From Oscillospiraceae bacterium (GTDB lineage Bacteria > Bacillota > Clostridia > Oscillospirales > Oscillospiraceae): 64,000 nt of DNA. Positions within the stretch are counted from its first letter, which is position 1. Every line of letters begins with the position of its first letter. A model generated the notes under the pieces. The model made no database searches. It saw only the letters and a list, made by a program, of their open reading frames with translations, and was not told where the DNA came from. The position numbers were made by a program, and so were the translations under genes. The stretch is taken from contig CADARY010000014.1 in NCBI GenBank assembly GCA_902790375.1, forward strand, positions 62,001 to 126,000, written 5' to 3'. This document shows, piece after piece, positions 1,655 to 22,453 of the stretch.

Positions 1655-1762
1655 AACCATAAATAACCACGTGCGGGCATGTATAAAAGATGACAAAACA
1701 GCTGCCGAGCCAAGCAAGGATATGGCTGCTATCGTAAAGATCATGAGGGGACGGTGCTGAAC

Positions 1763-4700: not shown

Positions 4701-5170
4701 CGAACCTTGACGTGCTGACAGGCGTTAAGAACAGACATGCTTACCTGGAAACGGAGGAGCGCCTGGATTCCCAGATCGCAGAGCATCGCGTGTCGGACTT
4801 TGCCATTGTGATCCTGGATGTGAACGACCTGAAGAAAATCAATGATACAGTCGGACACAAGGCCGGGGATCTATACCTGCGGGATGCCTGCCGTATCATC
4901 TGCGGTATTTTCAAGCACAGTCCCGTTTTCCGCATCGGCGGGGATGAATTTGTCGCCGTTATTCAGGGCACGGATTATGAATGCATCGAAGAGCTGATCG
5001 GAAAAATGAAGGATCACAACACCAAGGCGATTCAGACAGGCGGGATTGTCATTGCCTGCGGTATGTCAAAATATAACGGCGACGCCAGTGTGGCGCTCGT
5101 GTTCGACCGCGCAGACCAGAATATGTATGAAAACAAGAGCGACCTGAAGGACAGACGGTCTGCAGACTAA
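1763..5170 (+). CDS. Membrane diguanylate cyclase with two periplasmic solute-binding domains and PAS-type modules
   Basis: Predicted to make c-di-GMP from two GTP under control of an external ligand. Order in the 1135-residue product: signal peptide (1-31); first SBP_bac_3 domain (about 37-250), which keeps the family's ligand-contact arginine in SYKPERTEFMSF; second, more divergent SBP-like domain (about 268-500); one membrane helix (about 516-536); a PAS domain (about 565-680); two related PAS-like modules (about 713-830 and 852-965), each ending G-I-(A/S)-D-(V/I)-D; and a GGDEF domain with an intact RIGGDEF motif at 1059-1063. No RxxD inhibitory site precedes the motif. ATG 1763 is 12 bases after GAGGGG; GTG 1754 is an alternative start only 3 bases from it. 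First gene of a run of related sensors; 116 bases separate it from the next. The binding fold suggests an amino-acid-like ligand, which is inference. Confidence 0.85.
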   Translation: MGEKRSLRGLLRFLLCVIAVITLSMPAAAYAEEPNQKIVRVGWYDSSFCYWDEYGRRCGIDVEYQEKISAYTGWTYEYVEDSWSNLFQMLKNGKIDLLSDVSYKPERTEFMSFPDLPMGSEAYYIYIDAENREITADNLASFNGKRIGVNVDSIQEGFLKDWAERNGLNIEIVPMDLGEAESLDMLTRGEIDGYTTVYSFGSEQKIVPVSRVGASDYYYAVNKSRPDLLAELNLALSGIQDEDPDFRHRISQNNNYNTNTNIFLTPGQEDWLKAHGPIRIGYRDDCLPFCDADKQTGELIGALGDYLTHAANHLRRYDIQFEAHPYASTEDALKALRAGEIDCVFPVNLSSHDAAAMDVRVTAPAMKTEMNAVMRATDQQRLSRDSRISFAIHTDDLNIETFIMEKYPASDRKNYGDGKSCFAAVASGDADCILVSAYRMPAAEEIMTKYRLFSVPTGETMPLSFAVSRADRELYFILNKTAVTTDSDDMDSALASYMHTDQRASLTQVLKNNWRVVMLVMIAVFTIIIVLLLQKLKAERTANEQKRLLEEAEKIAELKQTIASLLDNMPGMNFTKDAKTGVYLACNRDFARYAHKEKPEDVIGLTAAQIFDEKTAAKFDEEDKIALSMDTPYIFVEDVPDANGNRHQLQTTKLKYTDASGRQCVLGICRDMTEMVRIRREIATSKEAYEKARRTGIIYTHIAQTLARSYTDLYYVNLQTEEYIEYRTDDEHNALTEARRGWHFFEECQVEVNEFVYPDDRAKFSKAMERKTLLAALEHNNTFMMQYRLISDHGPTYVTMKVSRMEDDERFIIIGIADVDEEVRQRLAMERVKEEQLSYARLRALAGDFLSLYSVVPETGHYHEYTATNSFKELASPREGADFFADSREQIRIVIYPEDQERLLEVLTKENVLAEIERHGIFSVSYRLMLEGKPRYVQLRAAIVEEKEGPRLIVGISDIDAHVRQEEEYERRLAQAQREANLDVLTGVKNRHAYLETEERLDSQIAEHRVSDFAIVILDVNDLKKINDTVGHKAGDLYLRDACRIICGIFKHSPVFRIGGDEFVAVIQGTDYECIEELIGKMKDHNTKAIQTGGIVIACGMSKYNGDASVALVFDRADQNMYENKSDLKDRRSAD

Positions 5171-5286
5171 GCGAAGACCCCGGGGCTGAAAGCTGCCCGC
5201 TGCGGGCGGGCAAAGCACGGCTTCGGTTCCGGTGCGAACCGGAAAAAAGCGAAAATCTGAGAGTGCTTTAAGGAGTGAGCGGGAAG

Positions 5287-8223: not shown

Positions 8224-8274
8224 GCACATGCTGCGCGGCGGGGTATCCGGAGCAAAAGGAATCAGGAGGCTGCA

Positions 8275-8751
8275 ATGCGTTTCTTGCTTTTGATCCCGGG
8301 GCTGGCCTGCCTGTTTTTGGGCGCTGTGTTTCTCCTCGTTTTCAGAATGAGCCGTAATAAACAGGAAGAAGAGGAACAGCGCTTTACGGGCAGGGCCTGG
8401 GCACGGCTTGCGGACACGGGGAGCAAATCGGAGCGCGACCCCGATGGGCGCGCGCATACCGTGTATTTCGGTATTTATGAATATGACACTGCCGACGGGC
8501 AGCGCGTCACATCCGCGTCGGAGTTCTGCTACGGCAACGAGCAGGACATTCCCGGTACACAGGGAAACATGGTGAAAATCTGCTACGATCCCCGGAAGCC
8601 GACGGACTATGCTCTCCCGGAGGAACAGGCAATCACCCTGCGTATTATGCCGACAGTCAAAAAAATCGGAATCTGGCTCATGATTCTCGGCGTTCTTCTC
8701 ACTCTGGCAGCTGCCGCCGTCATATCCGGGGTCATAAATCTTGAGGTCTGA
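8275..8751 (+). CDS. DUF3592-type membrane protein
   Basis: A 158-residue protein of unknown function. It has an N-terminal membrane helix (about 3-24), an extracytoplasmic-looking middle with VYFGIYEYDTADGQRV and ICYDPRKPTDYAL, and a second helix (about 128-150). That two-helix layout with a YDP-N/K-P motif fits the DUF3592 family. It lies 51 bases after the preceding phosphodiesterase gene on the same strand, with AGGAGGCTGC just before the ATG at 8275, so it may be co-transcribed. Being inside the c-di-GMP block suggests, but does not show, a link with signalling. Confidence 0.7.
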   Translation: MRFLLLIPGLACLFLGAVFLLVFRMSRNKQEEEEQRFTGRAWARLADTGSKSERDPDGRAHTVYFGIYEYDTADGQRVTSASEFCYGNEQDIPGTQGNMVKICYDPRKPTDYALPEEQAITLRIMPTVKKIGIWLMILGVLLTLAAAAVISGVINLEV

Positions 8752-8830
8752 AAGGAAGCGCGAACGGAACGGACGCCGCGCCCGAATGGCAGCGGGCTTC
8801 GGCGTATAAAGAGAAGCGGGAAACTGCCGC

Positions 8831-8860
8831 TTGCAATGACTGTCATGGCTATGATACAAT
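8831..8860 (+). promoter_or_regulatory. Candidate promoter upstream of the 257-bp repeat
   Basis: TTGCAA (8831-8836), 18 bases, TACAAT (8855-8860). The repeat element begins 10 bases after the -10, so if this promoter is active the element becomes the 5' untranslated leader of the SBP-EAL gene at 9188. Confidence 0.45.
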
Positions 8861-9137
8861 AAAAATGTAAGTGCGTATCGGTTTAACTCAGCTAATCCTG
8901 TCATTGCGAGCCAGCGCCGCAGCGTTGGCGTGGCAATCCGCCCGCCGGAGGCACTACTAATCACGGAAATGCTGGTTGTCCGCAGGAAGAACGGATTGCC
9001 ACACCAGTGACAGCGGTCACTTAAGTGAGCGTCCAAATCTTTGGTTTGGCTAACGCGAACTTACACCTCAGGCGGGTTCGCAATGACAGATCGAGAGCCG
9101 GCACTTGCTGAATTAAGCCGATACCCATAAAAATGTA
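8859..9137. repeat. MITE-like element flanked by 11-bp direct repeats
   Basis: The same 11 bases, ATAAAAATGTA, occur at 8859-8869 and 9127-9137 and look like a target-site duplication. Between them is 257 bp with outer inverted repeats GTATCGGTTTAACTCAGC (8875-8892) and GCTGAATTAAGCCGATAC (9107-9124; 16 of 18 match) and inner ones TGTCATTGCGAGCC (8899-8912) and GGTTCGCAATGACA (9075-9088). The TGTCATTGCGAGCC...GGCAATCCG type of sequence is common in Clostridia non-coding repeats. Inside, 9021-9064 forms a separate imperfect hairpin (AAGTGAGCGTCCAAA with TTTGGCTAACGCGAACTT). No protein is encoded; it would need a transposase supplied elsewhere. Confidence 0.75.
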
Positions 9138-9187
9138 TACAGGCTTCAAAAGCGGAATAATCCTGAACAGCGGGGGAAAGGTTGAAA

Positions 9188-12115
9188 ATGAAACAAAACA
9201 CAGTCAGATCGGAGCTTATGAAACGGCTTGCATCGCTGCTGCTCTGTTTCCTTATGGGAGTCTCTGTTTTGCCTCCAAGCGCTGCTCTGGCACAGGACGC
9301 GCAAAAGATCGTGCGTGTCGGCTGGTATGATTCCTCCTATAATACCGTTGATGCGTTCGGAAGACGCTCCGGCTACGCTTATGAGTACCAGCTCAAGATC
9401 GCGGCCTATACCGGCTGGTCGTATGAATATGTGACCGGAAGCTGGTCGGAGCTTCTGCGTATGCTCATCAACGGCGATATCGACCTGATGAGTGACGTCT
9501 CCTATACGGCCGAGCGCGCGGAGCGCATGCTGTTTCCCGAGCTTCCCATGGGTGCGGAGGAATACTATCTGTTTATCTCTCCCAATAACCGGGCCATCAG
9601 CTCGGCAGATTTCTCCACGCTGAACGGGAAGCGGATCGGCGTGAACAGGGACAGCATCCAGGCGGCCTTCTATCTTGAGTGGGCAAAGCGAAACGACGTC
9701 CAGGCTGAGCTGATCGAGCTGGCAAACACCGAGGATGAATCGCTGAGAATGCTGGAAACCGGAGAGCTGGACGCCTATGTCACCGTCGATTCCTTTACGG
9801 ACCCGAGCCGGGCGGTGCCGGTGGCCAAGGTCGGCTCCTCCGATTTCTTCTTTGCTGTCAACAAAACCCGGCCTGATCTGCTGAAGGACCTGAACGGCGC
9901 GATGAGCCGCATTCAGGACGAGAACCGCTACTTCAACCAGCAGATGTTTGAAAGATACATGAAAACAGCCGGCGCCAACGCCTTCCTCACGACGGAGGAG
10001 CTGAGCTGGCTCTCGGATCATGGCACGATCCGGGTGGGATATCAGGACAATTATCTGGCCTTCTGCGCCGCGGACAAGACAAGCGGGGAGCTGACAGGCG
10101 CCATGAAGGATTATCTGGACATCGCCTCCGGCTGCATGGAAAATGCCCGCCTTTCCTTTTCGGCCAAGGCCTATCCCACCATGGAGAAGGCTGTCAGCGC
10201 AATAAAAAACGGGGAAGTGGACTGTATTTTCCCTGCAAACCTGAGCGGCTATGACGGGGAAAAGCTCGGCATTGTCATGACGCCGCCCCTGCTGCGCACG
10301 GATATCTACGCGGTGGTGCGGGAATCGGACCTGAACATCTTCACCAACAAAGAGCATGTGATCGTGGCTGTAAATGAAGGGAACCTGAATTACGACACCT
10401 TCCTGCTCGACCGTTACCCGAACTGGCAGAAGGTATACTATACCAGCACCGCGGACTGCCTGAAGGCTGTGTCCGAGCGTGTGGCGGACTGTGTGCTGAT
10501 CAGCAGTTATCGCTACAATAATATTTACAGACAATGTGAAAAATATCATCTGACGACCCTCCCCACGGGTCTGGAGATGGATTACTGCTTAGCGGTCGAC
10601 AAGGGCGAAAAGGAGCTGTATTCCATCCTGACCAAGATGGTCAGCTTGGTTCCGACCTCTACCGTCAACTCGGCATTGTCCTACTATATCACGGAGGACG
10701 CAAAGCTCACGCTGGCCGATTTTATAGAAGACAATCTGACCGGCGTCATGACCGGCATCACCATCGTGATACTGGCGATCCTTTTCCTGCTGCTGAGAAG
10801 CATGCGGGCGGAGAAGAGGGCAAAGCAGCTCATATCCTTAACGGAGATCGACAGCCTGAGCGGCCTTTATAACCGCGACTATTTCTTCCAGTACGCAAAC
10901 CGCATCTTTCATGAACACCCCGATGTGCCGATGGACGCCATCGTGCTGAATATCGAGCAGTTTCATTCCATCAACGCGCTCAACGGCAGAGACTTCGGCG
11001 ATCAGATCCTCCGTGTTCTCGGCAGCGAGCTTCACGCAATCGCGGATGAAGCCGGCGGGATCGCCGGCAGATTCGGGGCGGATCGCTTTGACTGCTATTG
11101 TCGTCACGCCGCGGATTACCAGGCGATATTTGACCGCCTGCAGAGCAGGGTGGACGCCATGTCGCCGAACACCAGCGTGTTCCTGCGTATGGGCGTTGCG
11201 CTGTGCCAACCGGGCGTTGAGCCCGTCCAGCTTTTCGACAGGGCGAGGATCGCGTGCACACAGGCGCGCGGGCACTTCAAGGAGCATCTGATCGTTTTTG
11301 ATGAGCAGGTGCGCGAGCGTGAGCTGCTCGACCAGCGTCTGATCAACGATCTGCGCCGCGCCCTGGATAATTATGAGCTTGAGGTTTACTACCAGCCGAA
11401 GTTCGATGTCGGGTCTGAGCCGCCAAGGCTTGTGAGCGCAGAGGCGCTGGTGCGCTGGCAGCATCCGGAGCTCGGCATGATCACGCCGGATGTCTTTGTT
11501 CCGCTCTTTGAGCGCTGCGGAAAGATCAGCGAGGTGGACAAGTATGTCTGGTCTCAGGCGGCCAGGCAGATTGCCCGCTGGCAGGCCCGCTTCGGGAGGA
11601 CGATTCCTGTCTCGGTCAATCTCTCGCGGGTGGATGTGTTTGACCCGACGCTGGAGAAAAACCTGGAAGACATTATCCGGCAGAATGGCCTTGAGCGTGA
11701 CACGCTGAAGCTTGAGCTTACAGAGTCGGCCTATACGGAGAACGCGGAACAGGTGATCCGCGTCGTGGAGGGCTTGCGCGATAAAGGCTACACGGTGGAG
11801 ATGGATGACTTCGGCACAGGATATTCCTCGCTTAACATGCTCTCCGCCATGCCGGTCGACGTGCTGAAGATGGACAGGACCTTTATCCGCAACATGGAGA
11901 ACAACGAGCGGGATGTTCAGCTGGTGGCGCTGATCCTCGGCATTGCAAAGAATCTGAAAATCCCGGTCATTGCCGAAGGCGTGGAGACAGAGACCCAGCT
12001 TCAGATGCTGAAGAATCTGGGCTGTACGCTTGTGCAGGGATACTATTTTTCCCGTCCGCTGCACCCTGCCGAGTTTGAGTCGTCGCTTCTCAGCAATTCG
12101 GAGACGAAAGCCTGA
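9188..12115 (+). CDS. SBP-SBP-TM-GGDEF(degenerate)-EAL protein, predicted c-di-GMP phosphodiesterase
   Basis: A 975-residue paralogue of the protein at 5287-8223, with the same order: signal peptide (cleavage near ALAQ, about 36); SBP_bac_3 domain with DVSYTAERAERMLF; second SBP-like domain with DCIFPANLSGYDGE; one membrane helix (about 520-540); GGDEF fold with the non-catalytic signature GADRF (630-634); and an EAL domain with EAL at 752-754, SVNLSR, ELTES, MDDFGTGYSS, LKMD and AEGVET all intact. It should therefore degrade c-di-GMP in response to an outside ligand. ATG 9188 is preceded by GGGGGAAAGG at 6 bases. A 257-bp repeat separates it from the likely promoter at 8831. The next gene, a GGDEF protein, starts 22 bases after its stop, so synthesis and breakdown genes may share a transcript. 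Confidence 0.87.
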   Translation: MKQNTVRSELMKRLASLLLCFLMGVSVLPPSAALAQDAQKIVRVGWYDSSYNTVDAFGRRSGYAYEYQLKIAAYTGWSYEYVTGSWSELLRMLINGDIDLMSDVSYTAERAERMLFPELPMGAEEYYLFISPNNRAISSADFSTLNGKRIGVNRDSIQAAFYLEWAKRNDVQAELIELANTEDESLRMLETGELDAYVTVDSFTDPSRAVPVAKVGSSDFFFAVNKTRPDLLKDLNGAMSRIQDENRYFNQQMFERYMKTAGANAFLTTEELSWLSDHGTIRVGYQDNYLAFCAADKTSGELTGAMKDYLDIASGCMENARLSFSAKAYPTMEKAVSAIKNGEVDCIFPANLSGYDGEKLGIVMTPPLLRTDIYAVVRESDLNIFTNKEHVIVAVNEGNLNYDTFLLDRYPNWQKVYYTSTADCLKAVSERVADCVLISSYRYNNIYRQCEKYHLTTLPTGLEMDYCLAVDKGEKELYSILTKMVSLVPTSTVNSALSYYITEDAKLTLADFIEDNLTGVMTGITIVILAILFLLLRSMRAEKRAKQLISLTEIDSLSGLYNRDYFFQYANRIFHEHPDVPMDAIVLNIEQFHSINALNGRDFGDQILRVLGSELHAIADEAGGIAGRFGADRFDCYCRHAADYQAIFDRLQSRVDAMSPNTSVFLRMGVALCQPGVEPVQLFDRARIACTQARGHFKEHLIVFDEQVRERELLDQRLINDLRRALDNYELEVYYQPKFDVGSEPPRLVSAEALVRWQHPELGMITPDVFVPLFERCGKISEVDKYVWSQAARQIARWQARFGRTIPVSVNLSRVDVFDPTLEKNLEDIIRQNGLERDTLKLELTESAYTENAEQVIRVVEGLRDKGYTVEMDDFGTGYSSLNMLSAMPVDVLKMDRTFIRNMENNERDVQLVALILGIAKNLKIPVIAEGVETETQLQMLKNLGCTLVQGYYFSRPLHPAEFESSLLSNSETKA

Positions 12116-12137
12116 TAGAATCAGAGGTGATGCGCGA

Positions 12138-13757
12138 ATGCGCTCGTTACGTACAAAAATGACAATGCTGACCGTCTTTGCCATTCTCGTTGCGGTGACC
12201 AGCATCACGGTTCTCAGCGTGCTTTTTATTCGCAGCACGGAGCACCGGAAATCCGACCAGCTTCTCCTTCTGCTGTGCGAGACGGGGGAGAGGAATCTCG
12301 ACTATTATTTCAACAGCGTCCAGAAATCCGTTCGGAAGCTGGCAACCCATGTGGAGGCAGACCTGGACGGTGTGGAGAGCGGGCGGCTTGCGCGGCATGT
12401 CGAACGTGTGAAGCCCTTTTTTGAAGAAACCGCGGCCAAGACAAACGGGGTGCTGACCTATTATTACCGCATTGATCCGACCCTTTCGGATACGGTTAAG
12501 GGCTTCTGGTACACGAACCTCGACGGGGAAGGCTTTGTTGAGCATGCGGTGACGGATATCACGCTCTATGACACGGAGGATACCTCCAAGCTGGTCTGGT
12601 TCACTGTCCCGAAGCATTTTGGCGAGCCGATCTGGATTCCCCCGTACATTACGGACAATCTGGATGTGCGCGTGATCTCGTATAATGTTCCGATCTATTG
12701 GCGGGGCAGATTTGTCGGCGTGGTCGGGATCGAGCTTGACTATTCCACCATGGCCGAGCAGGTGGAGAGCATACGCCTGTTCAATAACGGCTATGCGTTT
12801 CTGAGCGATGGGGAAGGCAAGCTCTTCTACCATCCCCTGATCGACGTCACCCGCCTTACCGAGGAGGAGATGCCTGCGGTGCCGGACGGGCTGATCCAGA
12901 AGAATACCTTTTTCCATTATAAATATGAAGGGGTGGAAAAGGTCGGAGCCTGGCTGCCGCTGTCGAACGGGATGCGCCTGAACGTCACAGTGCCGATCTC
13001 GGAGACGGAAGGGGACTGGCAGAAGCTGATCCTGAACATCGTGATCGTGTCTGTTGAGGTGCTGGTCGCGCTGAGCATCTTTACCATGTTCTACACACGG
13101 CGCATCACGAAGCCGCTTGAGGAGCTGACCGACGCTGCCGAACAGGTGGACAAAGGCAATTACGACTTCGAGCTGAACTATGACGCGGATGATGAGATCG
13201 GCAGACTGACAAGCACCTTCAAGCGCCTGGCCGGCCACATGAAGGATCATATCTCCGATCTGAGCAAGCGCGCCTATGTCGATTCTCTGACCTCTGTGCG
13301 CAACAAAGGGGCGTATTCCACCTATATTGAGCAGCTCCAGACGCGCATGAATGAAACCAACGGGCTCATTGCCTTTGCGATCGGCATGTTTGACTGCGAC
13401 GACCTCAAGAAGATCAACGATCGCTACGGTCATGAAAAAGGCGATATTTATCTCAAAACAGCCAGCCGCCTGATCTGCCGCGTCTATCAGCACAGCCCCG
13501 TGTTCCGCATCGGCGGGGACGAGTTTTCCGTGGTTCTGCAGAATGATGATTATCGGAACAGGGAAGCGCTCGCACGGCAGTTCAGCAGGGAAATGGCGGA
13601 GATCTGTGCCGTCAACAAGAACAAATGGGAGCAGGTACATATTGCGATGGGCGTCGCGGTTTACGATCCGCAGACCGACCGTTCCGTGAACGATGTTATC
13701 CGACGCGCGGATGCCTGCATGTATGAAAACAAACGCAGCCGGAAAAGCGCGCGCTGA
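12138..13757 (+). CDS. dCache-HAMP-GGDEF diguanylate cyclase
   Basis: Predicted c-di-GMP synthase. In 539 residues: N-terminal membrane helix (about 9-30); a large extracellular dCache-type sensor (about 40-300) with the GVVGIELDYSTM and NGYAFLSDGEGKLFYHP elements of that fold; second helix (about 306-325); HAMP linker (RRITKPLEELTDAAEQVDKG); GGDEF domain with intact RIGGDEF near residue 460 and D-D-L-K-K-I-N in the GTP pocket. There is no RxxD site before the motif, so product inhibition of the usual kind is not expected. dCache domains often bind amino acids or small amines, in keeping with its neighbours. ATG 12138 has AGAGGTG 8 bases upstream; the frame is open further back inside the previous gene, but those starts are not credible. 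Confidence 0.87.
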   Translation: MRSLRTKMTMLTVFAILVAVTSITVLSVLFIRSTEHRKSDQLLLLLCETGERNLDYYFNSVQKSVRKLATHVEADLDGVESGRLARHVERVKPFFEETAAKTNGVLTYYYRIDPTLSDTVKGFWYTNLDGEGFVEHAVTDITLYDTEDTSKLVWFTVPKHFGEPIWIPPYITDNLDVRVISYNVPIYWRGRFVGVVGIELDYSTMAEQVESIRLFNNGYAFLSDGEGKLFYHPLIDVTRLTEEEMPAVPDGLIQKNTFFHYKYEGVEKVGAWLPLSNGMRLNVTVPISETEGDWQKLILNIVIVSVEVLVALSIFTMFYTRRITKPLEELTDAAEQVDKGNYDFELNYDADDEIGRLTSTFKRLAGHMKDHISDLSKRAYVDSLTSVRNKGAYSTYIEQLQTRMNETNGLIAFAIGMFDCDDLKKINDRYGHEKGDIYLKTASRLICRVYQHSPVFRIGGDEFSVVLQNDDYRNREALARQFSREMAEICAVNKNKWEQVHIAMGVAVYDPQTDRSVNDVIRRADACMYENKRSRKSAR

Positions 13758-13802
13758 ATAAGCAAAGCGGGCGCGGAGAGTGCCGGCGCTGGAGGCGAAA
13801 AG

Positions 13803-16715
13803 ATGAAATCAGGAAAACGGATACGGTATGCGGCGCGCGGCGCGCTCCTGCTTGCGCTCACGGTTCTGGCCGCCCTTGCGCTGCCGCTCGGCGCGCATGC
13901 GCGGGAATCCGAAAAAATCGTCCGTGTCGGCTGGTATGAATCGCCGTTCAACACCACGGATGAGCTGGGGCGGCGCTCCGGCTACGCCTATGATTATCAG
14001 CAGAAGATCGCCGCCTGTACCGGCTGGACATACGAATATGTGACCGGGAGCTGGCCGGAGCTGCTGCAAATGCTTGAGGATGGCAGGATCGACCTGATGA
14101 GCGATGTCTCCTATACGGACGAGCGCGCGGAAAAAATGCTGTTCTCCGCGCAGCCGATGGGGACGGAGGATTACTATCTCTTCACGGCGCCCGGCAATCA
14201 TGAGATCACACCGGAGGACTTTTCCACCATCAACGGCAGAAAGGTCGGCGCGAACAAGGGCAGCGTTCAGATTACCTTCTTCCGGAATTGGGCGGAGGCA
14301 AACGGCGTCCGGGCGGAGATCGTGGAGATGACCGGCTCGGAGGAGTATAACATTACCCAGCTCAAGCTCGGCGAGATCGACCTCTATGCGTCGCTTGACG
14401 GACTGCACAAGGCCGGGGACGCCGTGCCTGCCTGCAAGATCGGCTCCTCCGATTTTTACTTTGCCGTCAGCAAATCGCGCCCTGAGCTTCTCGGCGAGCT
14501 CAACAACGCCATGACCAAGATTCTGGACGAGAACCCGCTTTATAATCGAACGCTCTATGAAAAGTACCTCGAAACCGCAAAGATCAACCACTATCTCAGC
14601 GCAGATGAGATCGCCTGGCTCTCTGCCCACGGCCCGATCCGGGTTGGATACCGGGACAATTATCTGGCTTTCTGCGCCAGGGATCAGAAAACAGGGGAGC
14701 TGACCGGCGCGCTGAAGGACTTTCTGGAGGCTGCCTCGGACTGCCTCAATAACGCCCATCTGGAATTTGAGCCGGTCGCCTTTTCCACGGCCGAGGCTGC
14801 GATGGAGGCGTTGAAGAGCGGAGAGGTGGACTGCGTATTTCCCGTAAACCTCACGGATTATGACGGGGAGATTCAGGGCGTTTTCATCACGCCCGCGCTG
14901 ATGCGCACGGACATGGCCGCAGTGATCCGCGAGTCGGATAAAGACTCCTTCACAAAGAAGGAGCGGGTGGCGGTTGCCGTCAACGTGGGGAATCCCAACT
15001 ATGAAATGTTCCTGATGGATCATTTCCCGCAGTGGCGGACGGTCTTTTTTGAGGATACGCCGAGCTGCCTGCGCGCCATTGCGGACGAACAGGCGGACTG
15101 TCTGCTGATCAGCAGCTACCGCTTCAACAACATCTCCGACCTCTGCGGAAAGTATAACCTGACGACTATTTCCACCGGCGTTGAAATGGATGATTGCCTC
15201 GCGGTAAACCGGCAGGATACGCTCCTGTATTCCATCCTGAGCAAAATTACCGGCATCGTCCCGGCTTCCACGATCAATGCGTCCCTGACAAAGTATTATG
15301 CGGAGGATGCAAAAACCACTATCATTGATCTTTTCAGGAGAAACCTCCTTGTTTTGCTGGGCGTGTTTGCCTTGATCGGCGGCGTGTTTCTGTTCCTGCT
15401 GCTGCGCGGAATGAAAGCTGAAAAAAGAGCGGACGAAAAACAGCGCCTGATTGCGAAAACTGAGATCGACAAGCGGACAGGTCTGTATAACAGGGAATAC
15501 TTCTACGCCTATGCCGAGCGAATGTACCGTGAGAAGCCCGACCAGCCGATGGATGCCGTCGTGCTGAGCGTCGATCAGCTTTCGGCTGTCGGCCTCATGT
15601 ACGGGCAGCACTTTGAGGAGGATATCCTGCGCACGCTGGGAGCGGGGCTCCAGACCTTCGTAAAAAAGCATGGCGGGATCACCGGCAGGACAGACACAAA
15701 CCGCTTTGCCGTCTTCTGCCCGCCCGTGGAGGACTATGAAACCCTCTATCGCAGCCTGCAGGGGAGCCTGGACATTCTCTCACCGGATATGAGGCTGCGG
15801 CTGAAAATGGGCGTCGCGCCCTGGCGCGCGAATACGGAACCCGTGCGTATGCTTGAGCTGGCGCGCATGGCCTGCCGAAAGGCGCGCCGGATGGGGGAGG
15901 AGCGCATGGTCGTCGTTGACGAGAAGCTTCTCGAACAGGAGGCATACGATAAGCGCCTCCTGAGCGATCTGAAGCGTGCCTTGGAGGCCATGGAGTTTGA
16001 GGTCTATTATCAGCCGATGCTTGATACCCGAACCGAGACGCCGAAGCTCGCCGGCGCGGAGGCGCTGGTGCGCTGGCAGCACCCGGAACTCGGCCTCATT
16101 GAACCGGTCGATTTCCTGCCTCTGCTTGAGCGCAGCGGAGAGATCTGCTCGGTGGATCAGTACGTCTGGAAGGAAGCGGTTCGCCAGCTTGCGTCCTGGA
16201 AGAAGAAATACGGCACAGCGGTTCCGGTGTCGGTCAACCTGTCGAGCCAGGATCTGTTTGATCCTGCCTTGAAGCGGACGCTGGGGGAGGCGATCAGGGA
16301 AAACGGCCTTTCCTGCGATGATCTCAAGCTGGAGATCAGGGAATCGGTGTGCGCGGAAAACAGATTCCAGATCTTTGACATTGTGGAAAGCCTGCGCAGA
16401 GCGGGCTATGAGATCCAGATCGACAATTTCGGCGCGGAGAGCGGCACGCTCAGCGTGCTCTCATCCATAGCCGTCGACGGCCTGAAGCTCGAGAAAATTC
16501 TGGTTTCCGAGCTGGGACAGGATGAAAAGGCTTCGCGGCTTGTCGATCTGATTCTGGAGACTGCGAAATACCTCAAGCTTCCCGTGGTCGCTGTGGGAGT
16601 GGAGACAGAGGAGCAGATGCGGCTTTTGAAGAAGAAAGGCTGCGCCCTTGCACAGGGTTATTATTTCTCCCGGCCGCTTCCGGCAGCGGAGTTTGAAGCG
16701 CGCTTTCTGCAATAA
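13803..16715 (+). CDS. SBP-SBP-TM-GGDEF-EAL paralogue with both c-di-GMP domains degenerate
   Basis: A 970-residue paralogue of the two SBP-EAL proteins upstream: signal peptide (about 1-33), SBP_bac_3 domain with DVSYTDERAEKMLF, second SBP-like domain (about 265-495), membrane helix (about 517-538), GGDEF and EAL. The GGDEF signature is DTNRF (631-635). The EAL domain keeps EAL (753-755), SVNLS and the LK lysine. The usual ExTES is EIRES, the DDFGTGYSS loop reads DNFGAESGT (second metal aspartate is N875), and AEGVET reads AVGVET (V931 for the catalytic glutamate). Known EAL enzymes need these residues, so it is probably inactive and could serve as a c-di-GMP receptor or a regulator of its paralogues. 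GGAGG lies 7 bases before the ATG. Sits 45 bases after the cyclase gene. Confidence 0.85.
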   Translation: MKSGKRIRYAARGALLLALTVLAALALPLGAHARESEKIVRVGWYESPFNTTDELGRRSGYAYDYQQKIAACTGWTYEYVTGSWPELLQMLEDGRIDLMSDVSYTDERAEKMLFSAQPMGTEDYYLFTAPGNHEITPEDFSTINGRKVGANKGSVQITFFRNWAEANGVRAEIVEMTGSEEYNITQLKLGEIDLYASLDGLHKAGDAVPACKIGSSDFYFAVSKSRPELLGELNNAMTKILDENPLYNRTLYEKYLETAKINHYLSADEIAWLSAHGPIRVGYRDNYLAFCARDQKTGELTGALKDFLEAASDCLNNAHLEFEPVAFSTAEAAMEALKSGEVDCVFPVNLTDYDGEIQGVFITPALMRTDMAAVIRESDKDSFTKKERVAVAVNVGNPNYEMFLMDHFPQWRTVFFEDTPSCLRAIADEQADCLLISSYRFNNISDLCGKYNLTTISTGVEMDDCLAVNRQDTLLYSILSKITGIVPASTINASLTKYYAEDAKTTIIDLFRRNLLVLLGVFALIGGVFLFLLLRGMKAEKRADEKQRLIAKTEIDKRTGLYNREYFYAYAERMYREKPDQPMDAVVLSVDQLSAVGLMYGQHFEEDILRTLGAGLQTFVKKHGGITGRTDTNRFAVFCPPVEDYETLYRSLQGSLDILSPDMRLRLKMGVAPWRANTEPVRMLELARMACRKARRMGEERMVVVDEKLLEQEAYDKRLLSDLKRALEAMEFEVYYQPMLDTRTETPKLAGAEALVRWQHPELGLIEPVDFLPLLERSGEICSVDQYVWKEAVRQLASWKKKYGTAVPVSVNLSSQDLFDPALKRTLGEAIRENGLSCDDLKLEIRESVCAENRFQIFDIVESLRRAGYEIQIDNFGAESGTLSVLSSIAVDGLKLEKILVSELGQDEKASRLVDLILETAKYLKLPVVAVGVETEEQMRLLKKKGCALAQGYYFSRPLPAAEFEARFLQ

Positions 16716-16803: not shown

Positions 16804-16953
16804 TAAGGCAACACCGCACAATCCGCCTGCGGCATCTCCTGGAAAATTTGTGCCCTGATTTCGTCCCTTTTTCTTGAGGTACACAAAGTACATCTGCGAA
16901 AAAGTGCCTTTATCAGAACCCAAATTTTCTCAGGATCTGCTCTTGCCGAATTA
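16804..16953 (-). repeat. Gene-end repeat, copy 1 (lies inside the 3' end of the permease-GGDEF-EAL gene)
   Basis: About 150 bp matching the copies at 23622, 35572 and 63934. The outer end at 16804 is complete (AAGGCAACACCGCACAATCC). At the end facing the gene the first 14 or so bases of the other terminal repeat are absent and the sequence passes straight into coding DNA at about 16953. Read on the minus strand it runs ATTCGGCAAGAGCAGATCC onward and supplies the last codons and the stop of the gene at 16913-21304. Confidence 0.85.
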
Positions 16954-19900
16954 CGATGACGATATGGTGATCGTCGCTGCTTCTGGTCTTGATCGCCTGC
17001 AGGATGTACGGCTTTAATTTGCCCTCCCGCATCCGTCGGAAGGAGACTTCCTCTATGTTTTCCTGGTCGATCCAGCGGAGCAGACTTGTCTTGCTGAGCA
17101 CATCTCTGATTTTTTCTCTGTCCTCGGCACACACGTCCTCCAGCAGCTTTTCTCTGGCGTCTCCATAGAAATCTATACCGCCGGGGCGGATTTCAAGATC
17201 GCCATCCCTGCCGCTGTAGAACTCAAGGAAGTGGGCAGAAACAACGTCCACATAGAAGATGCTCTCGAAATCGCTGGTTAGCGCTTTGGAGATGCTCATA
17301 TAGGTCTTTCTCGTCACCGGCGTCACCGCGTAGGCAGTCTCTGCCCGCTCGATCAGGAAACGGTCAAAGTCCTCCGGCGGCACGGGCTTTGAGAAGTAAT
17401 AGCCCTGCACATATTCGCAGCCCATCGCCTTCAGAACCAGATACTGCTCCTGCGTCTCCACGCCTTCCGCCACGACCGGTACGTGCAGATAATCCGCAAT
17501 GTCGATGATCAGCTCGATCATCCGCACATCTCTGTTCTCTCCGAAGGCGCTGCGAATGAAGCTCATGTCCAGCTTCAGCGCGTCGATCGGCAGGTGGGAC
17601 AGCATACCCAGCGACGAATAGCCGGTGCCGAAGTCGTCCATCTCGATACGGAAGCCCATCCCCATACCGCGCAGCTCTTTTGCCGTGGAGATCACCTGGT
17701 CGGAGTCACCGGTGTAGGCAGACTCCGTGATCTCGAGCATCAGATCATCCGGGCTGAGATGATGCTCATCCAGGATCTCCTTGAAAATGTTTTTCAGATT
17801 CGGCGTCAGCATATCAATGCGGGATACATTGACCGACACCGGCACGGAAAAGCCGAAGCGGTCTTTCCAGTCCCGTATCCTTGCCGCCGCTTCACGCCAT
17901 ACGAACTGGTCGAGATCCAGAATCAGGCCGTTATCCTCCAGCAGCGGGATAAACACACCGGGATTGATCATGCCGAGCTCGGGATGATTCCAGCGCACCA
18001 GGGCTTCCGCGCTGGCCAGAACGGGCTTGTCGGGACGGATATCAAACTTGGGCTGGAAATACACCATGAAGCAGTTGCTTTCCAGCGAGGGCTTGAAGTC
18101 CTCCAGCAGGCGTTCCTTATAAAGCTCCGCCTCATGCATCTTGATATCGTAGATCCCGATCGCCTTTCGGAAGCCGTATTTCACGGTATTTGCGGCGACC
18201 TTCGCGTAATCAAAGCGCCGTTCGATCTGAAGCGACTTGTCCACCCGGGAGTATACGCCCATGCGCAGACGCACGCGGTTGGCGGACACATCCTCGTCCA
18301 CAAGGCCCTCGGACGCCTGATCCAGGATGCTCTCATAGTCCTCTCTGTGCGGGCAGTAGATGTAGAAGATATCCGCTGCGCGGCGGCAGCATACGCCGCC
18401 CACCTCGCGGGAGATCTGCCGGATACGATTGCCGAGCCGGGCGAGCACACTGTCGCCGTACTGTTTTCCGTAGCGCTCGTTGAGCAGGTGAAAATGGTTG
18501 ACGTCAAGCACGATGGCGTCCATCGGCAGATCGTGATAATGCTGGTCATACAGGCGAACGTAGCGGAGGAAATAATCCAGGTTCAGCAGGTTCGTCAGGC
18601 TGTCGCGCTCTGTGGACTGGATGATGTTCCGTTTTTCATTCAGCTCGATGCAGCGGTTGACACGGGCCTGAATGATCTCGGGAGAGGGATAGGGCTTGGG
18701 GATAAAGTCGATGGCGCCGATCTTCAGGCAATCGACCTCCGCGCTCTGATCCGCGGTCATCACGATCACCGGGATATTGCTGAGCTCCGCCTCTTCCTTC
18801 ATGACCTTCAGAACCTCCATACCGCTCATCTGCGGCATCTGGAGGTCGAGCAGCACGATTGCCAGATCGTCTTTATGGGTCTTGACCTGTTCCAGCGCTT
18901 CATTCCCGTTCGAGGCATACAGAACCTCATAGCTGTCACCGAGCATATTGCCCAGGATCATCTGATTGATGCGCTCGTCCTCTACGATGAGGACATAGCG
19001 TTTCAGATTCAGGATCTCCGCGTCTTCATCTGCCGGGAAAATCGGCTTCGCGGCAACCTCGGCGTCCTCACGCGATATGGCGCCCATTCCTTTGAGAAGC
19101 TTCTTTTCCTCATACATCAGGTTGTCCGCGCGCTCAAACACTTCGTGGAAGCTGGTGTCGATCCCGGCCTGATATTCCGAAAGGCCGCCCGAGACGACGA
19201 CATCCTTGGTGCTGATATGCTCCACGGACCGGTCATGCAGCGCCAAAAGCAGCTCCTTGCGGATGAGATAATCACGCCCGTGCAGGATCACCACGAACTC
19301 GTCTCCGCCCGTCCGGTAAACCGGGCTGTGCTGGAAGATGTCGCAGATCATCCTGCAAGCCTTGACGATATGCTCGTCGCCCGCTTTATGGCCGAGGGTG
19401 TCGTTGATCACCTTCAGGCCGTTCACGTCGCAGACGACGACCGCAAAGGCTTCCGCGCTGCCCTCGTCAATGGCGGCGTTGATCTGCTTCTGCCTCAACA
19501 GGAAGGCGTGCTTGCTCTTGACCCCGGTCAGGGGATCGGTCAGCGCGATCGTCTCGGCCGCATCACGCTCCGCCTGTGCTTTTTGCTCCCACTTGCGCAT
19601 GGAGACATAGTTGGCGAGCATGACCAGGAGGGACAGGCCGAAGAGACTCACGATCACGAATACGCTGGTGTTGTCGGCGTCATGGAGGCGTTTGAGCTCC
19701 ATTGCGAGAAAGTCGCTCTTGCTCATTGCGAGCAGCTTGCTGTCGCCCGCACCATCCATATAGGAAGAAATTTCCGCAATGATGGCGTTTTCTCTGCTCT
19801 CGTTCAGCCTTTCCGCCCAGGTCATTGCCATCAGAACGATAAAGACAAGCAGGGAAAGCCAGACAACGATGGCTTTGCCGAACTTTCTTTCCTGATCGTT

Positions 19901-21304
19901 GCGGATGACCCAGCTGAAATACAGCACCCCGAGGAACGTCCACACGGCCATCAGCACATAGGTCTCCGTAGCGATGGTGTAATCGGAGAAGGCGCTCGGG
20001 AACAGCAGGAATATGGAAAAGGCAACCAGAATGAAAAGGCAGATGCCGCTGATCAGGCGATTCTTTTTGACGCCCTCCTGTCCCGAGACCTTGAAGACTG
20101 CGACCGATACGAAGCCGTAGATAATGGTGGCTCCAAACGTGGTGGCGTCCACGATCCACCCGATCGCCGTTCTGCCGAGAAACGGGATGGGCAGAGAGAC
20201 AAGCAGCACCAGCAGAATGGCGTTGACGGGGATCTGCTTGTCATTGAGCCTGGCAAAGCGCACGGGCAAGATACCGTCCAGCGCTGCGGCATAGCACAGG
20301 CGGCTCAGGGCGCGCAGCATACCGATCAGGCTCGAAAGGACCAGGGCCAGCAGAGATGCCATCAGGATATTCACACCGGTCTGACCGAGGTAATAGTTTG
20401 CCGCGTAAAAGGCAGGCAGGCCGGCGATCCCGTCAAATTCGTCCAGGCGGGTGATATAATCCAGCCAGCCGGAGCAGCTCTCCGGATAAGCGGAGACGCT
20501 CAGAAGAACAATAAAGATGTACAGGGCGGTGGTGACGGTCACGGCGAGGACGAGGATGCGGAACATATTGCTGTGCTTGAATTTGTATTCCTCGGCCGAA
20601 TGCGTCACGGTTTCAAAGCCGATGAAAGCCCAGGGAGAGATAAAGGCAATGCGGATCACCTGCCCCAGGACGTTTTTATCCGGGAGAAAGGCAGGACTCA
20701 TGCTCATGCCGGTGCTGCGGTGCCCGATCATGGCAACAGCGAAGCATACCGTAATGCCGACGGTGAAGACCAGCACCATCACCACCATGAGCCTGGCAGT
20801 CGCCGTCTTGCTCTTCATGCACAGCAGACCGACCAGCCACATCACCACCAGCGTCACCAGCGCTTCCCCAAGGTAGACCTCATAGCCGAAGACCTTGAAG
20901 AGATACACCTTCTTAAAGACGGCCTGCAGGAAATAGCGCGCGAACAGGGGAATGCTCGTGGCGTTGGCCCAGAAGATCGAGATATAGATCAGGAACATGA
21001 ACCAGGCGATCAGGAAGGCGAGGTCATAGCCGAAGATGCACTTCACATAGTTATAAAGACCGCCTGTGCCCGGATAACGATTGGCCAGAAAATGATAATG
21101 GCTCGACACCATCAGCATCATGGCAAACCCGATCAGCAGGCCGAGGATGGAGCCCATCGGTCCCGCCTGGGAGAGGTAGGAGCTGCTGGTGACAACAAGC
21201 GAACCCCAGCCGATAGCCGAACCGACCGACAGCGCCCAGACGGCCAGCGGCGAAAGATAGGGCTGCAGCGTTTGTTTTTGTGTGATGTTCTTTGTCTCGT
21301 TCAT
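16913..21304 (-). CDS. APC-family permease fused to GGDEF-REC-GGDEF-EAL
   Basis: A 1463-residue fusion of a transporter and c-di-GMP signalling domains. Residues about 10-440 are an APC amino-acid permease (SVGSAIGWGSLV in helix 1, then GTGGLYNYVKCIFG and a dozen hydrophobic helices), followed by further helices to about 590. Then: GGDEF with intact RTGGDEF (666-670) and no RxxD site; a receiver domain with VEDE (D776), phosphoacceptor D820 in LLDLQMP and FIPKPY; a second GGDEF fold with AADIF near 975; an EAL domain with EAL at 1100-1102, SVNVSR, EITES, MDDFGTGYSS, LKLD and AEGVET, all intact; and a PAS-like module like those in the gene at 1763. The last residues, RQEQILRKFGF, come from the repeat at 16804-16953 and cut that module short. 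ATG 21304 has AGGAG 8 bases upstream. It could both make and degrade c-di-GMP; its substrate is unknown. Confidence 0.88.
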   Translation of the reverse strand: MNETKNITQKQTLQPYLSPLAVWALSVGSAIGWGSLVVTSSSYLSQAGPMGSILGLLIGFAMMLMVSSHYHFLANRYPGTGGLYNYVKCIFGYDLAFLIAWFMFLIYISIFWANATSIPLFARYFLQAVFKKVYLFKVFGYEVYLGEALVTLVVMWLVGLLCMKSKTATARLMVVMVLVFTVGITVCFAVAMIGHRSTGMSMSPAFLPDKNVLGQVIRIAFISPWAFIGFETVTHSAEEYKFKHSNMFRILVLAVTVTTALYIFIVLLSVSAYPESCSGWLDYITRLDEFDGIAGLPAFYAANYYLGQTGVNILMASLLALVLSSLIGMLRALSRLCYAAALDGILPVRFARLNDKQIPVNAILLVLLVSLPIPFLGRTAIGWIVDATTFGATIIYGFVSVAVFKVSGQEGVKKNRLISGICLFILVAFSIFLLFPSAFSDYTIATETYVLMAVWTFLGVLYFSWVIRNDQERKFGKAIVVWLSLLVFIVLMAMTWAERLNESRENAIIAEISSYMDGAGDSKLLAMSKSDFLAMELKRLHDADNTSVFVIVSLFGLSLLVMLANYVSMRKWEQKAQAERDAAETIALTDPLTGVKSKHAFLLRQKQINAAIDEGSAEAFAVVVCDVNGLKVINDTLGHKAGDEHIVKACRMICDIFQHSPVYRTGGDEFVVILHGRDYLIRKELLLALHDRSVEHISTKDVVVSGGLSEYQAGIDTSFHEVFERADNLMYEEKKLLKGMGAISREDAEVAAKPIFPADEDAEILNLKRYVLIVEDERINQMILGNMLGDSYEVLYASNGNEALEQVKTHKDDLAIVLLDLQMPQMSGMEVLKVMKEEAELSNIPVIVMTADQSAEVDCLKIGAIDFIPKPYPSPEIIQARVNRCIELNEKRNIIQSTERDSLTNLLNLDYFLRYVRLYDQHYHDLPMDAIVLDVNHFHLLNERYGKQYGDSVLARLGNRIRQISREVGGVCCRRAADIFYIYCPHREDYESILDQASEGLVDEDVSANRVRLRMGVYSRVDKSLQIERRFDYAKVAANTVKYGFRKAIGIYDIKMHEAELYKERLLEDFKPSLESNCFMVYFQPKFDIRPDKPVLASAEALVRWNHPELGMINPGVFIPLLEDNGLILDLDQFVWREAAARIRDWKDRFGFSVPVSVNVSRIDMLTPNLKNIFKEILDEHHLSPDDLMLEITESAYTGDSDQVISTAKELRGMGMGFRIEMDDFGTGYSSLGMLSHLPIDALKLDMSFIRSAFGENRDVRMIELIIDIADYLHVPVVAEGVETQEQYLVLKAMGCEYVQGYYFSKPVPPEDFDRFLIERAETAYAVTPVTRKTYMSISKALTSDFESIFYVDVVSAHFLEFYSGRDGDLEIRPGGIDFYGDAREKLLEDVCAEDREKIRDVLSKTSLLRWIDQENIEEVSFRRMREGKLKPYILQAIKTRSSDDHHIVIVIRQEQILRKFGF

Positions 21305-21410: not shown

Positions 21411-21439
21411 ATTCTACTATATTTTTGCTTTTTTTTCAA
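21411..21439 (-). promoter_or_regulatory. Promoter of the permease-GGDEF-EAL gene
   Basis: On the minus strand TTGAAA (21434-21439), 17 bases, TAGAAT (21411-21416), about 107 bases before the ATG. The -35 overlaps the folD stop codon (21436-21438), so this gene has its own promoter at the very end of folD. The rest of 21305-21435 is A/T-rich without other recognisable signals. Confidence 0.6.
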
Positions 21440-22326
21440 TGATATTCTTCCAATAAGGCGGCACTTGTTTTATCGAAGGCCAACAGCCCCATATGGAGCC
21501 TTGCCAGCGTGAGCGCGTTTTCCAGGAGCATGGCCCGCGTCATCGGGCCGACCCCTCCCGGAACCGGGGTGATGTGGGAGCAAATGTCCTTTACCTCGTC
21601 AAAGCACACATCCCCGGTAAACTTCCCGGTGACAGGATCACGGTTCATGGCGACATCGATCACCACGGCCCCGTCCTTCACCATGTCTGCGGTGATGAGT
21701 CCCGGGCGCCCTGCCGCAACGATCAGTATATCCGCCAGGCGCGTCATGGCGGCAAGATCCTGCGTGTGGCTGTGGCAGTAGATCACGGTGCCGTGGCGCT
21801 GAAGCAGGAGCAGGCCCATGGGCTTGCCGACAATCTCGCTTCTGCCGATGACGACGCAGGTCTTGCCGTCCACGCAAATGTGATAGGCGTCCAGCAGACG
21901 GCCAATCCCGCGGGGCGTGCACGGCCAGAGCACGGAATCCCCTTGAACCATTCGCCCCACATTGAGCGGATGGAAAGCGTCCACATCCTTTGCCGGACTG
22001 ATGGATTCTATGATGCGGCGCTCGTTGAAGGACGCCGGGAGAGGGAGCTGAACCAGAATGCCGTCAATGGCAGCGTCGTCGTTGAGCTTGCTGATCGCAC
22101 CAAGCAGCTCTTCCTCCGAGACGGAGACGGGGTAATGGATCAGACGCGAAAAGAAACCGCATTCCCCGCAGTCTTTGATCTTGTTCGTCACATAGAGCTG
22201 CGAAGCGGGATCATCTCCGACAAGGATAACGGCGACCCCGGGCCTGCGCGGCAGCTTTGCGGCTTCCTCCTGAATCCTCCGGCGGATCGACGCCGCGAGA
22301 GCTTTTCCATCCAGTATCGTGGGCAT
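21436..22326 (-). CDS. folD: Bifunctional methylenetetrahydrofolate dehydrogenase / cyclohydrolase
   Basis: FolD interconverts 5,10-methylene-, methenyl- and 10-formyl-tetrahydrofolate, feeding purine and formyl-Met-tRNA synthesis. The 296-residue product has family length. It shows YVTNKIKDCGECG (the family's YxxxK catalytic region), DGILVQLPLP, DVDAFHPLNVGRM, the Rossmann segment CVVIGRSEIVGKPMG and the C-terminal PVPGGVGPMTRAMLLENAL. ATG 22326 is chosen because AAAGGAGATC precedes it; an upstream ATG at 22362 adds 12 residues without a binding site. It is transcribed from the promoter at 22454-22482 and its stop overlaps the promoter of the next gene on the same strand. Confidence 0.96.
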   Translation of the reverse strand: MPTILDGKALAASIRRRIQEEAAKLPRRPGVAVILVGDDPASQLYVTNKIKDCGECGFFSRLIHYPVSVSEEELLGAISKLNDDAAIDGILVQLPLPASFNERRIIESISPAKDVDAFHPLNVGRMVQGDSVLWPCTPRGIGRLLDAYHICVDGKTCVVIGRSEIVGKPMGLLLLQRHGTVIYCHSHTQDLAAMTRLADILIVAAGRPGLITADMVKDGAVVIDVAMNRDPVTGKFTGDVCFDEVKDICSHITPVPGGVGPMTRAMLLENALTLARLHMGLLAFDKTSAALLEEYH

Positions 22327-22453
22327 TTTGTGATCTCCTTTCTGCGCCCTGCGCGCCCGCAATTTTCACAGTGAAAGGGACAGTATTCTCCGGGCATGGC
22401 AGCGAAGGCGCATGACAAAAGAAAAATAAAAACGCAGGTTCAAAGCGTGGGTA

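What the first reader, a model, noticed from the sequence alone, without database searches (positions are those of the whole stretch)
16913..21304. Amino-acid permease fused to a c-di-GMP circuit: APC-GGDEF-REC-GGDEF-EAL
One protein joins a full 12-helix-type APC permease with an intact GGDEF, a receiver domain with all phosphorylation residues (D776, D820, FIPKPY), a degenerate GGDEF and an intact EAL. It could tie nutrient transport directly to making and destroying a second messenger, with phosphorylation as a third input. APC permeases joined to sensor kinases are known; this architecture with two output enzymes and a receiver is not one I know. It also has its own promoter and stands opposite a run of SBP-containing c-di-GMP enzymes, so the whole block may be one amino-acid sensing module.
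Basis: partly seen in the sequence, partly recalled or inferred. Interest (0 to 1): 0.85.

Follow-up and report, generated by a model that had tools for sequence, protein, structure and literature searches.

The report
Amino-acid permease fused to c-di-GMP switches
A gut bacterium carries one giant protein in which an amino-acid transporter is welded to enzymes that should make and destroy the signal molecule cyclic di-GMP, and the same protein turns up in dozens of other gut microbes, some only distantly related, which suggests that a transporter has become a nutrient sensor that spreads between species.

Summary
It is no assembly artefact: 38 other records, one of them the isolate Lachnospiraceae AC2029, hold the same architecture, with catalytic and phosphorylation residues almost invariant. 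It belongs to a wider set in which the same permease head carries GGDEF, HD-GYP or a hybrid histidine kinase; I found none described. In some relatives APC-GGDEF and REC-GGDEF-EAL are adjacent genes, the likely precursors. The signalling cassette is one clade, the permease heads are not (AU p 1e-8), so heads and outputs were exchanged. The gene moves between phyla: 78-81% identical in seven genomes whose RpoB is 55-59% identical, but 65-75% in three near relatives with 96% RpoB. Best reading: a permease-based receptor ("transceptor") driving the first cyclase through a helix of nearly fixed length, while phosphorylation of REC, perhaps by sister APC-histidine kinases, sets the EAL phosphodiesterase. 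Substrate, transport, activity and direction of control are inferred, not shown. The SBP "module" idea is only weakly supported.

The parts
16913..21304 (-). whole gene: APC-TM2-GGDEF-REC-GGDEF(degenerate)-EAL-PAS-like, 1463 aa, ATG start with AGGAG upstream
19859..21268 (-). [not shown]
19547..19858 (-). rest of TM13 (hydrophobic aa 473-500), loop of about 42 aa (probably extracellular), TM14 (aa 543-569), signal helix into GGDEF1 (aa 483-586 in all)
19100..19546 (-). GGDEF1 (aa 587-735): intact GGDEF, metal-binding D626, no RxxD I-site
18665..18994 (-). receiver (aa 771-880): D776, D820, T850, K870
18140..18616 (-). GGDEF2 (aa about 897-1055), degenerate AADIF; keeps D934 and N936
17384..18100 (-). 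EAL phosphodiesterase domain (aa 1069-1307), catalytic motifs present
16931..17299 (-). PAS-like domain (aa about 1336-1458); repeated copies in stand-alone relatives L037, L038, L125
   Evidence: PAS_3 matches only in relatives and weak
21411..21439 (-). promoter-like TTGAAA-17-TAGAAT (weak, chance not excluded)
21436..22362 (-). neighbour: folD (THF dehydrogenase/cyclohydrolase), same strand, also in the nearest relative L055
1754..16715 (+). convergent run: SBP-PAS-GGDEF (1754-5170), SBP-GGDEF-EAL (5275-8223, 9182-12115, 13803-16715), dCache-HAMP-GGDEF (12030-13757); context, not shown to belong to the system

Best explanation
It is a permease-based receptor (transceptor) for c-di-GMP. An amino acid (or similar solute) bound or carried by the APC head changes its conformation; the change passes through TM13-TM14 and a helix of nearly fixed length to the first GGDEF, which as a dimer makes c-di-GMP and lacks the usual product-inhibition site. 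Independently, phosphorylation of the receiver by a histidine kinase (candidates: sister APC-HK-REC proteins or neighbouring hybrid kinases) acts on the degenerate GGDEF, a regulatory pseudo-enzyme, to set the EAL phosphodiesterase. One polypeptide thus integrates a solute signal (synthesis) and a phosphorelay signal (degradation). It arose by fusion of two adjacent genes and was spread horizontally. SHOWN by sequence: architecture, conservation, two-gene form in relatives, head/cassette exchange, horizontal spread. INFERRED: ligand, sensing, dimer, direction of control, kinase partner, sign of each effect.
For: Full architecture in 38 of the 80 loci kept (L092 is cut by its contig inside the EAL). 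GGDEF1 D-E-F 39 of 39, REC D776/D820/K870 39 of 39, T850 38 of 39 (one Ser), EAL residues in all 38 rows that reach them, no canonical motif in GGDEF2 in 39 of 39. The same head carries GGDEF (40 rows), HD-GYP (5) and HK-REC (10): what a sensory input module does. TM14-to-GGDEF1 is 25 residues in 58 of 69 rows, 18 in 10, 35 in 1, while the outer loop has 8 lengths; TM14-to-His is 34 in 7 of 7 APC-HK rows. Positions equivalent to GkApcT T43/F231/D237 (my mapping along the alignment; roles from passages of PMC5803215) are W33/W225/E231, each 39 of 39. APC-GGDEF gene followed by REC-GGDEF-EAL in 6 loci, preceded by it in 3. APC-HK junction in 29 of 38 full-fusion genomes against 12 of 39 comparison genomes. 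Response_reg (11), HATPase_c (9) and HisKA (9) are the commonest families among 96 neighbours. Precedent: CbrA, transporter plus kinase in one chain (PMC7096432 abstract).
Against: No biochemistry. The head lacks the TM5 lysine of GkApcT (T185) and has a bulky Trp where that protein has Thr43 at the substrate carboxylate, so classical transport is uncertain. In CbrA the SLC5 domain only appears to modulate the kinase, and histidine affected none of the activities significantly (abstract), so sensing cannot be assumed from architecture. The ten 18-residue helices are one clade of the head tree, so the seven-residue step is a single event, and the one 35 is not a multiple of seven away. No kinase lies beside the window gene; the nearest HATPase_c on its contig is about 42 kb off. 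REC, GGDEF2 and EAL are better conserved than the head in 37 of 38 relatives.
Confidence: 0.55

Rival explanations
1. Control runs the other way: the cytosolic enzymes and the phosphorylated receiver regulate an ordinary amino-acid transporter, and c-di-GMP is a local by-product or a local brake on uptake.
For: APC fold is complete and pocket core conserved; a coupling helix of fixed length would work in either direction.
Against: The same head is joined to GGDEF, HD-GYP and kinase outputs, which are signal emitters; head exchange around a conserved cassette fits a swappable sensor better.
Confidence: 0.15
2. The head is a pure receptor that binds but no longer transports.
For: Trp33 is 39 of 39 in full fusions and 93 of 94 across the fused types, where GkApcT has Thr43 lining the site; TM5 lysine absent.
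Against: Permeases without an output domain also carry it (4 of the 6 rows in the group labelled ALONE; L004 of the same genome reads CWG), so Trp33 is not a mark of lost transport; AdiC/LAT types work without the lysine (recalled).
Confidence: 0.2
3. The permease is a membrane anchor; signalling is controlled only by REC and the PAS-like domain.
For: The REC-GGDEF2-EAL part is more similar to the window than the head is in 37 of 38 relatives.
Against: A 14-helix domain with invariant pocket core and nearly constant helix length, kept across dozens of genomes, is far more than an anchor needs.
Confidence: 0.07
4. Assembly or binning artefact.
For: The window genome is a fragmented draft (95 contigs, 88.6% complete).
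Against: 38 other records incl. an isolate; fusion and PurA on one contig in G799 and in G800.
Confidence: 0.01

Closest known systems
CbrA and CrbS, SLC5(-STAC)-histidine kinase transceptors
   Same: Transporter domain and signalling output in one chain (PMC13022988 passages, PMC7096432 abstract)
   Different: SLC5 not APC head, STAC linker, histidine kinase output, no c-di-GMP enzyme in the chain
AdiC / LAT / CAT amino-acid transporters (APC superfamily)
   Different: about 17-18% identity to AdiC, two extra TMs, C-terminal signalling domains, Trp in the TM1 GxG, no TM5 Lys
PA0575 and other GGDEF-EAL proteins with solved structures
   Same: GGDEF2-EAL module, 31% identity to PA0575 structure 5m3c
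   Different: Here preceded by REC and by a second, intact GGDEF, and headed by a permease
Stand-alone REC-GGDEF-EAL response regulators of the same bacteria (window genome C36, 597 aa)
   Same: Same three domains: REC 52%, GGDEF2 39%, EAL 54% identity
   Different: No permease; gene lies between kinase genes

Membership tests
APC amino-acid permease superfamily | significant Pfam match over most of the domain | tested here: met
   PF13520 17-436, 105.8 bits, cut-off 27
APC amino-acid permease superfamily | LeuT-type fold | tested here: met
   [not shown]
APC amino-acid permease superfamily | transport activity | not testable with these tools
   needs an uptake assay
diguanylate cyclase (GGDEF1) | GG(D/E)EF and metal-binding Asp | tested here: met
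   both Gly in 38 of 39, D668-E669-F670 39 of 39, D626 39 of 39
product-inhibited (I-site) diguanylate cyclases | RxxD site before the GGDEF motif | tested here: not met
   F657 and S660 in 39 of 39; so a cyclase without I-site, not of this subgroup
EAL phosphodiesterase | catalytic residues (E of EAL, N, E, DD, K, E, Q) | tested here: met
   all 38 rows that reach them
response-regulator receiver | acidic pair, phospho-Asp, Thr/Ser, Lys | tested here: met
SLC5-STAC histidine kinase transceptors (CbrA type) | SLC5/SSS transporter head and kinase | tested here: not met
   Pfam finds an APC head and no HisKA/HATPase in the protein; it may work like one, it is not a member

The most novel reading that the evidence does not exclude
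A mobile, cross-phylum class of APC transceptors exists in gut (mostly ruminant) bacteria: one permease head acts as a plug-in amino-acid receptor for several c-di-GMP outputs (GGDEF, HD-GYP, GGDEF-REC-GGDEF-EAL) and for hybrid kinases, and the two kinds form a circuit in which an APC-kinase phosphorylates the receiver of the APC-GGDEF-REC-GGDEF-EAL protein, so that two permease heads in one cell set synthesis and degradation of the same messenger against each other.
Probability: 0.3. Interest if true: 0.88.

Novelty: new variant of a known kind. Interest (0 to 1): 0.72.

Why it matters
How bacteria read nutrients into c-di-GMP is often unknown, because many GGDEF/EAL proteins have sensors of unknown ligand. 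Here the sensor is a transporter fold with a known type of ligand, so ligand screens are direct. It would widen transceptors from SLC5-kinase proteins to APC heads with second-messenger enzymes, joins a two-component receiver to the same chain, and is carried between phyla, which hints at an advantage in the gut. An isolate (Lachnospiraceae AC2029) holds it, so it can be tested.

Tried and rejected
Assembly artefact: rejected by 38 other records. One architecture for all 80 loci: rejected; 38 full, the rest GGDEF-only, HD-GYP or split; these 80 are the best matches to the window's kind of head, so 38 of 80 is not a population frequency. L096 looked like a lone permease plus a separate REC-GGDEF-EAL: it is two overlapping frames of one gene, i.e. 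a frameshifted full copy. SBP neighbours as a conserved module: 4 of 96 neighbour proteins, not supported. A first search of 150 family genomes with the whole protein gave no second full-length copy (three candidates per genome scored). PAS-like domain: no Pfam match in the window protein, one chance-level PDB hit, weak PAS_3 in relatives; kept as PAS-like on predicted topology only; the structure comparison barely tested that part (one search covers model residues 161-587). Plasmid search: no record with 80% of the query among the 5000 best (limit reached). Literature: searches listed no paper; 24-27, 30, 31 and 85 listed papers whose titles and abstract starts do not describe an APC-GGDEF protein. 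I looked at passages of PMC13022988, PMC10333796, PMC5803215, PMC9371280, PMC12802237 and PMC2907700 and the abstract of PMC7096432; in PMC9371280, PMC12802237 and PMC2907700 the terms stand in unrelated places. The other listed papers were not opened. Only open-access papers are held. Recalled and not looked up: Amt-GGDEF fusions mentioned in a review, GTP-dependent activation of PA0575, receptor-cyclase helices spaced in heptads.

Full report
OBSERVATION. The ORF at 16913-21304 (-) is open over 1463 codons and holds an APC permease, GGDEF, receiver, a second weaker GGDEF and EAL. I add two hydrophobic segments after the permease (473-500, 543-569), a loop of about 42 residues between them that should lie outside if the permease has both termini inside (inference), a long helix into the cyclase (AlphaFold model, mean pLDDT 87.1, 69-row alignment), and a C-terminal PAS-like fold (model with mean pLDDT 79.2). 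The gene follows folD on the same strand; the nearest relative L055 has the same order. The promoter claim is weak.

IS IT REAL. Translating these 80 loci gives the full architecture in 38, with heads 48-94% identical to the window's; one, L092, is cut by its contig. L119 is the isolate Lachnospiraceae AC2029 on a 3.86 Mb contig. 34 of the 38 titles match ruminant words or project codes (what codes such as RUG stand for is partly recalled). In the window's own family the junction profile A5 covers both GGDEF1 and REC in 2 of 400 genomes, both of the window's genus (10 genus members in the draw); 7 further genomes match the GGDEF part only (at most five candidates per genome scored). In a phylum-wide draw it is 1 of 398, the window's own. 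So it is recurrent but patchy.

CONSERVATION. Across the 39 full proteins the GGDEF1 D-E-F is 39 of 39 (first Gly 38), its metal Asp 39, the I-site positions are F and S in 39 (site absent); REC D776, D820, K870 are 39 and T850 38; GGDEF2 has a canonical motif in none (commonest GADTF, 17 of 39) but keeps D934 (39) and N936 (38); the EAL catalytic residues are in all 38 rows that reach them. Both enzyme sites and the phosphorylation site are therefore kept by selection. The GGDEF2-EAL half resembles PA0575 (5m3c), whose deposited structure has GTP bound.

THE FAMILY. In the set used for the head tree (96 rows) the same head has GGDEF only in 40 rows, the full cassette in 39, HisKA-HATPase-REC(-REC) in 10, HD-GYP in 5 (L102, L104, L113, L114, and L115 of the isolate Ruminococcus sp. 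YE71; HD_5 confirmed in all five), and 2 rows without output (one is the frameshifted L096). The window genome has three: the full fusion, an APC-GGDEF (C61, 745 aa) and an APC-HK-REC-REC (C36, 1111 aa) beside a stand-alone REC-GGDEF-EAL, plus an unfused relative (L004). L094 has three in tandem: APC-HK-REC-REC, the full fusion, APC-GGDEF.

ORIGIN. In L083, L099, L107, L121, L125 and L134 an APC-GGDEF gene is directly followed by a REC-GGDEF-EAL gene, and in L079, L080 and L118 preceded by one: the two-gene form from which the fusion can arise. In the tree of REC-GGDEF2-EAL (62 rows) all 38 full fusions used (window included) fall in one clade (SH-aLRT 100) whose only other member is L096. In the head tree they are scattered (at least 5 changes forced by starred branches), and holding them together is rejected (p-AU 1e-8). 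The simplest reading is one fusion followed by exchange of heads and outputs. GGDEF1 needs 3 changes. The trees are quick ones, with some long branches.

HORIZONTAL SPREAD. PurA identity to the window was compared with fusion identity in 25 genomes: no positive relation (Spearman -0.21, p 0.31). L060, L063, L065, L066 and L069 (Atopobiaceae-, Coriobacteriaceae- and Solobacterium-labelled) have PurA 39-41% and RpoB 55-59% but a fusion 78-81% identical; L062 and L101 (labelled Chloroflexi) RpoB 55%, fusion 80 and 78%. L074, L077 and L094 have PurA 94-95% and RpoB 96% but a fusion only 65-75% identical (RpoB compared for 14 genomes from open frames of 530-1203 aa). Not all fits transfer: L055 (RpoB 99%, fusion 95%) and distant members such as L119 (RpoB 64%, fusion 54%) are as expected by descent. 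In G799 (L065) and G800 (L069) fusion and PurA lie on one contig, so binning error is not the cause there.

MECHANISM. (a) Input. The head has the fold of AdiC. Positions that GkApcT uses to bind and enclose substrate (T43, F231, D237; passages of PMC5803215; mapped by me along the alignment printed) are W33, W225 and E231, each 39 of 39; E115 and M321, near the side chain, correspond to I106 and M329, which vary. This fits conserved backbone recognition with differing specificity and speaks against a cationic substrate (inference). (b) Coupling. TM14 to GGDEF1 has 25 residues in 58 of 69 rows, 18 in 10 and 35 in one; the outer loop has eight lengths and the GGDEF1-REC linker nine. A helix of constant length that changes by seven is what a coiled-coil transmitter would show; but the ten 18-residue rows are exactly one clade of the head tree, so this is one event, and 35 does not fit. 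In APC-HK the TM14-to-His distance is 34 in 7 of 7. (c) Second input. The REC-GGDEF2 and GGDEF2-EAL spacings have one length in 39 of 39, so REC is likely coupled to the EAL half. Who phosphorylates it? Among 96 proteins within two genes of full fusions, Response_reg (11), HATPase_c (9) and HisKA (9) are the commonest families, the others listed have 4 or fewer; the window genome has 22 HATPase_c matches in 3.1 Mb, so chance would give about one (estimate, one gene per kb; kinase density of the other genomes was not measured). APC-HK junctions occur in 29 of 38 full-fusion genomes and 12 of 39 others (Fisher 8.7e-5; 0.0036 adjusted for genome size); kinship was not corrected. No kinase was found beside the window gene (nearest on the contig about 42 kb away), so its partner, if any, is elsewhere, C36 being my best candidate.

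COMPARISON. Transporter-kinase chains are known: CbrA binds and transports histidine and is a kinase (abstract of PMC7096432), and its 2026 structure paper calls it a rare transceptor (passages of PMC13022988; GGDEF does not occur in its main text). This protein may work like those but is not one: head and outputs differ. None of ten literature searches brought up a description of an APC-GGDEF protein; the library is open-access only, and domain-architecture databases, which probably list such proteins automatically, were not on hand.

VERDICT. Observation confirmed; the fusion is real, conserved and part of a horizontally spread family that I could not find described. Sensing and circuit logic are inferred. 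New variant of a known kind.

Noticed in passing
L102, L104, L113, L114, L115 (6944-9322, 1987-4377, 3981-6395, 7001-9394, 6977-9367, all +): The same permease head is fused to an HD-GYP-type HD_5 domain, possibly a degrader version of the sensor; L115 is an isolate, Ruminococcus sp. YE71.
   Followed up: partly
L094:3577-13739: Three permease-headed signalling genes in tandem: APC-HK-REC-REC, the full fusion, APC-GGDEF.
   Followed up: partly
window 16913-21304 and L060, L063, L065, L066, L069: Cross-phylum horizontal transfer of the fusion gene; no mobile element was looked for beyond the neighbour scan.
   Followed up: partly
window 1754-16715: Five c-di-GMP genes in a row on the + strand, four with SBP_bac_3 sensors and one with dCache-HAMP; the own genome has 34 GGDEF matches.
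   Followed up: no
L037:1222-5217 (-), L125:9197-12733 (+): Stand-alone REC-GGDEF-EAL-PAS(n)-GGDEF proteins; the last GGDEF of L037 is 55% identical to GGDEF1 of the window, and the L125 gene directly follows an APC-GGDEF gene.
   Followed up: partly
own genome C7:69586-73413: A 1451-aa open frame with two GGDEF matches far apart; fetched (L137) but not examined.
   Followed up: no
L096:6905-11217: Frameshifted copy of the full gene (two overlapping frames); real lesion or sequencing error not decided.
   Followed up: partly
permease heads (window aa 33): A tryptophan stands in the TM1 GxG substrate loop in 93 of 94 fused heads and in 4 of 6 rows without output; the unfused L004 of the window genome reads CWG there.
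   Followed up: partly
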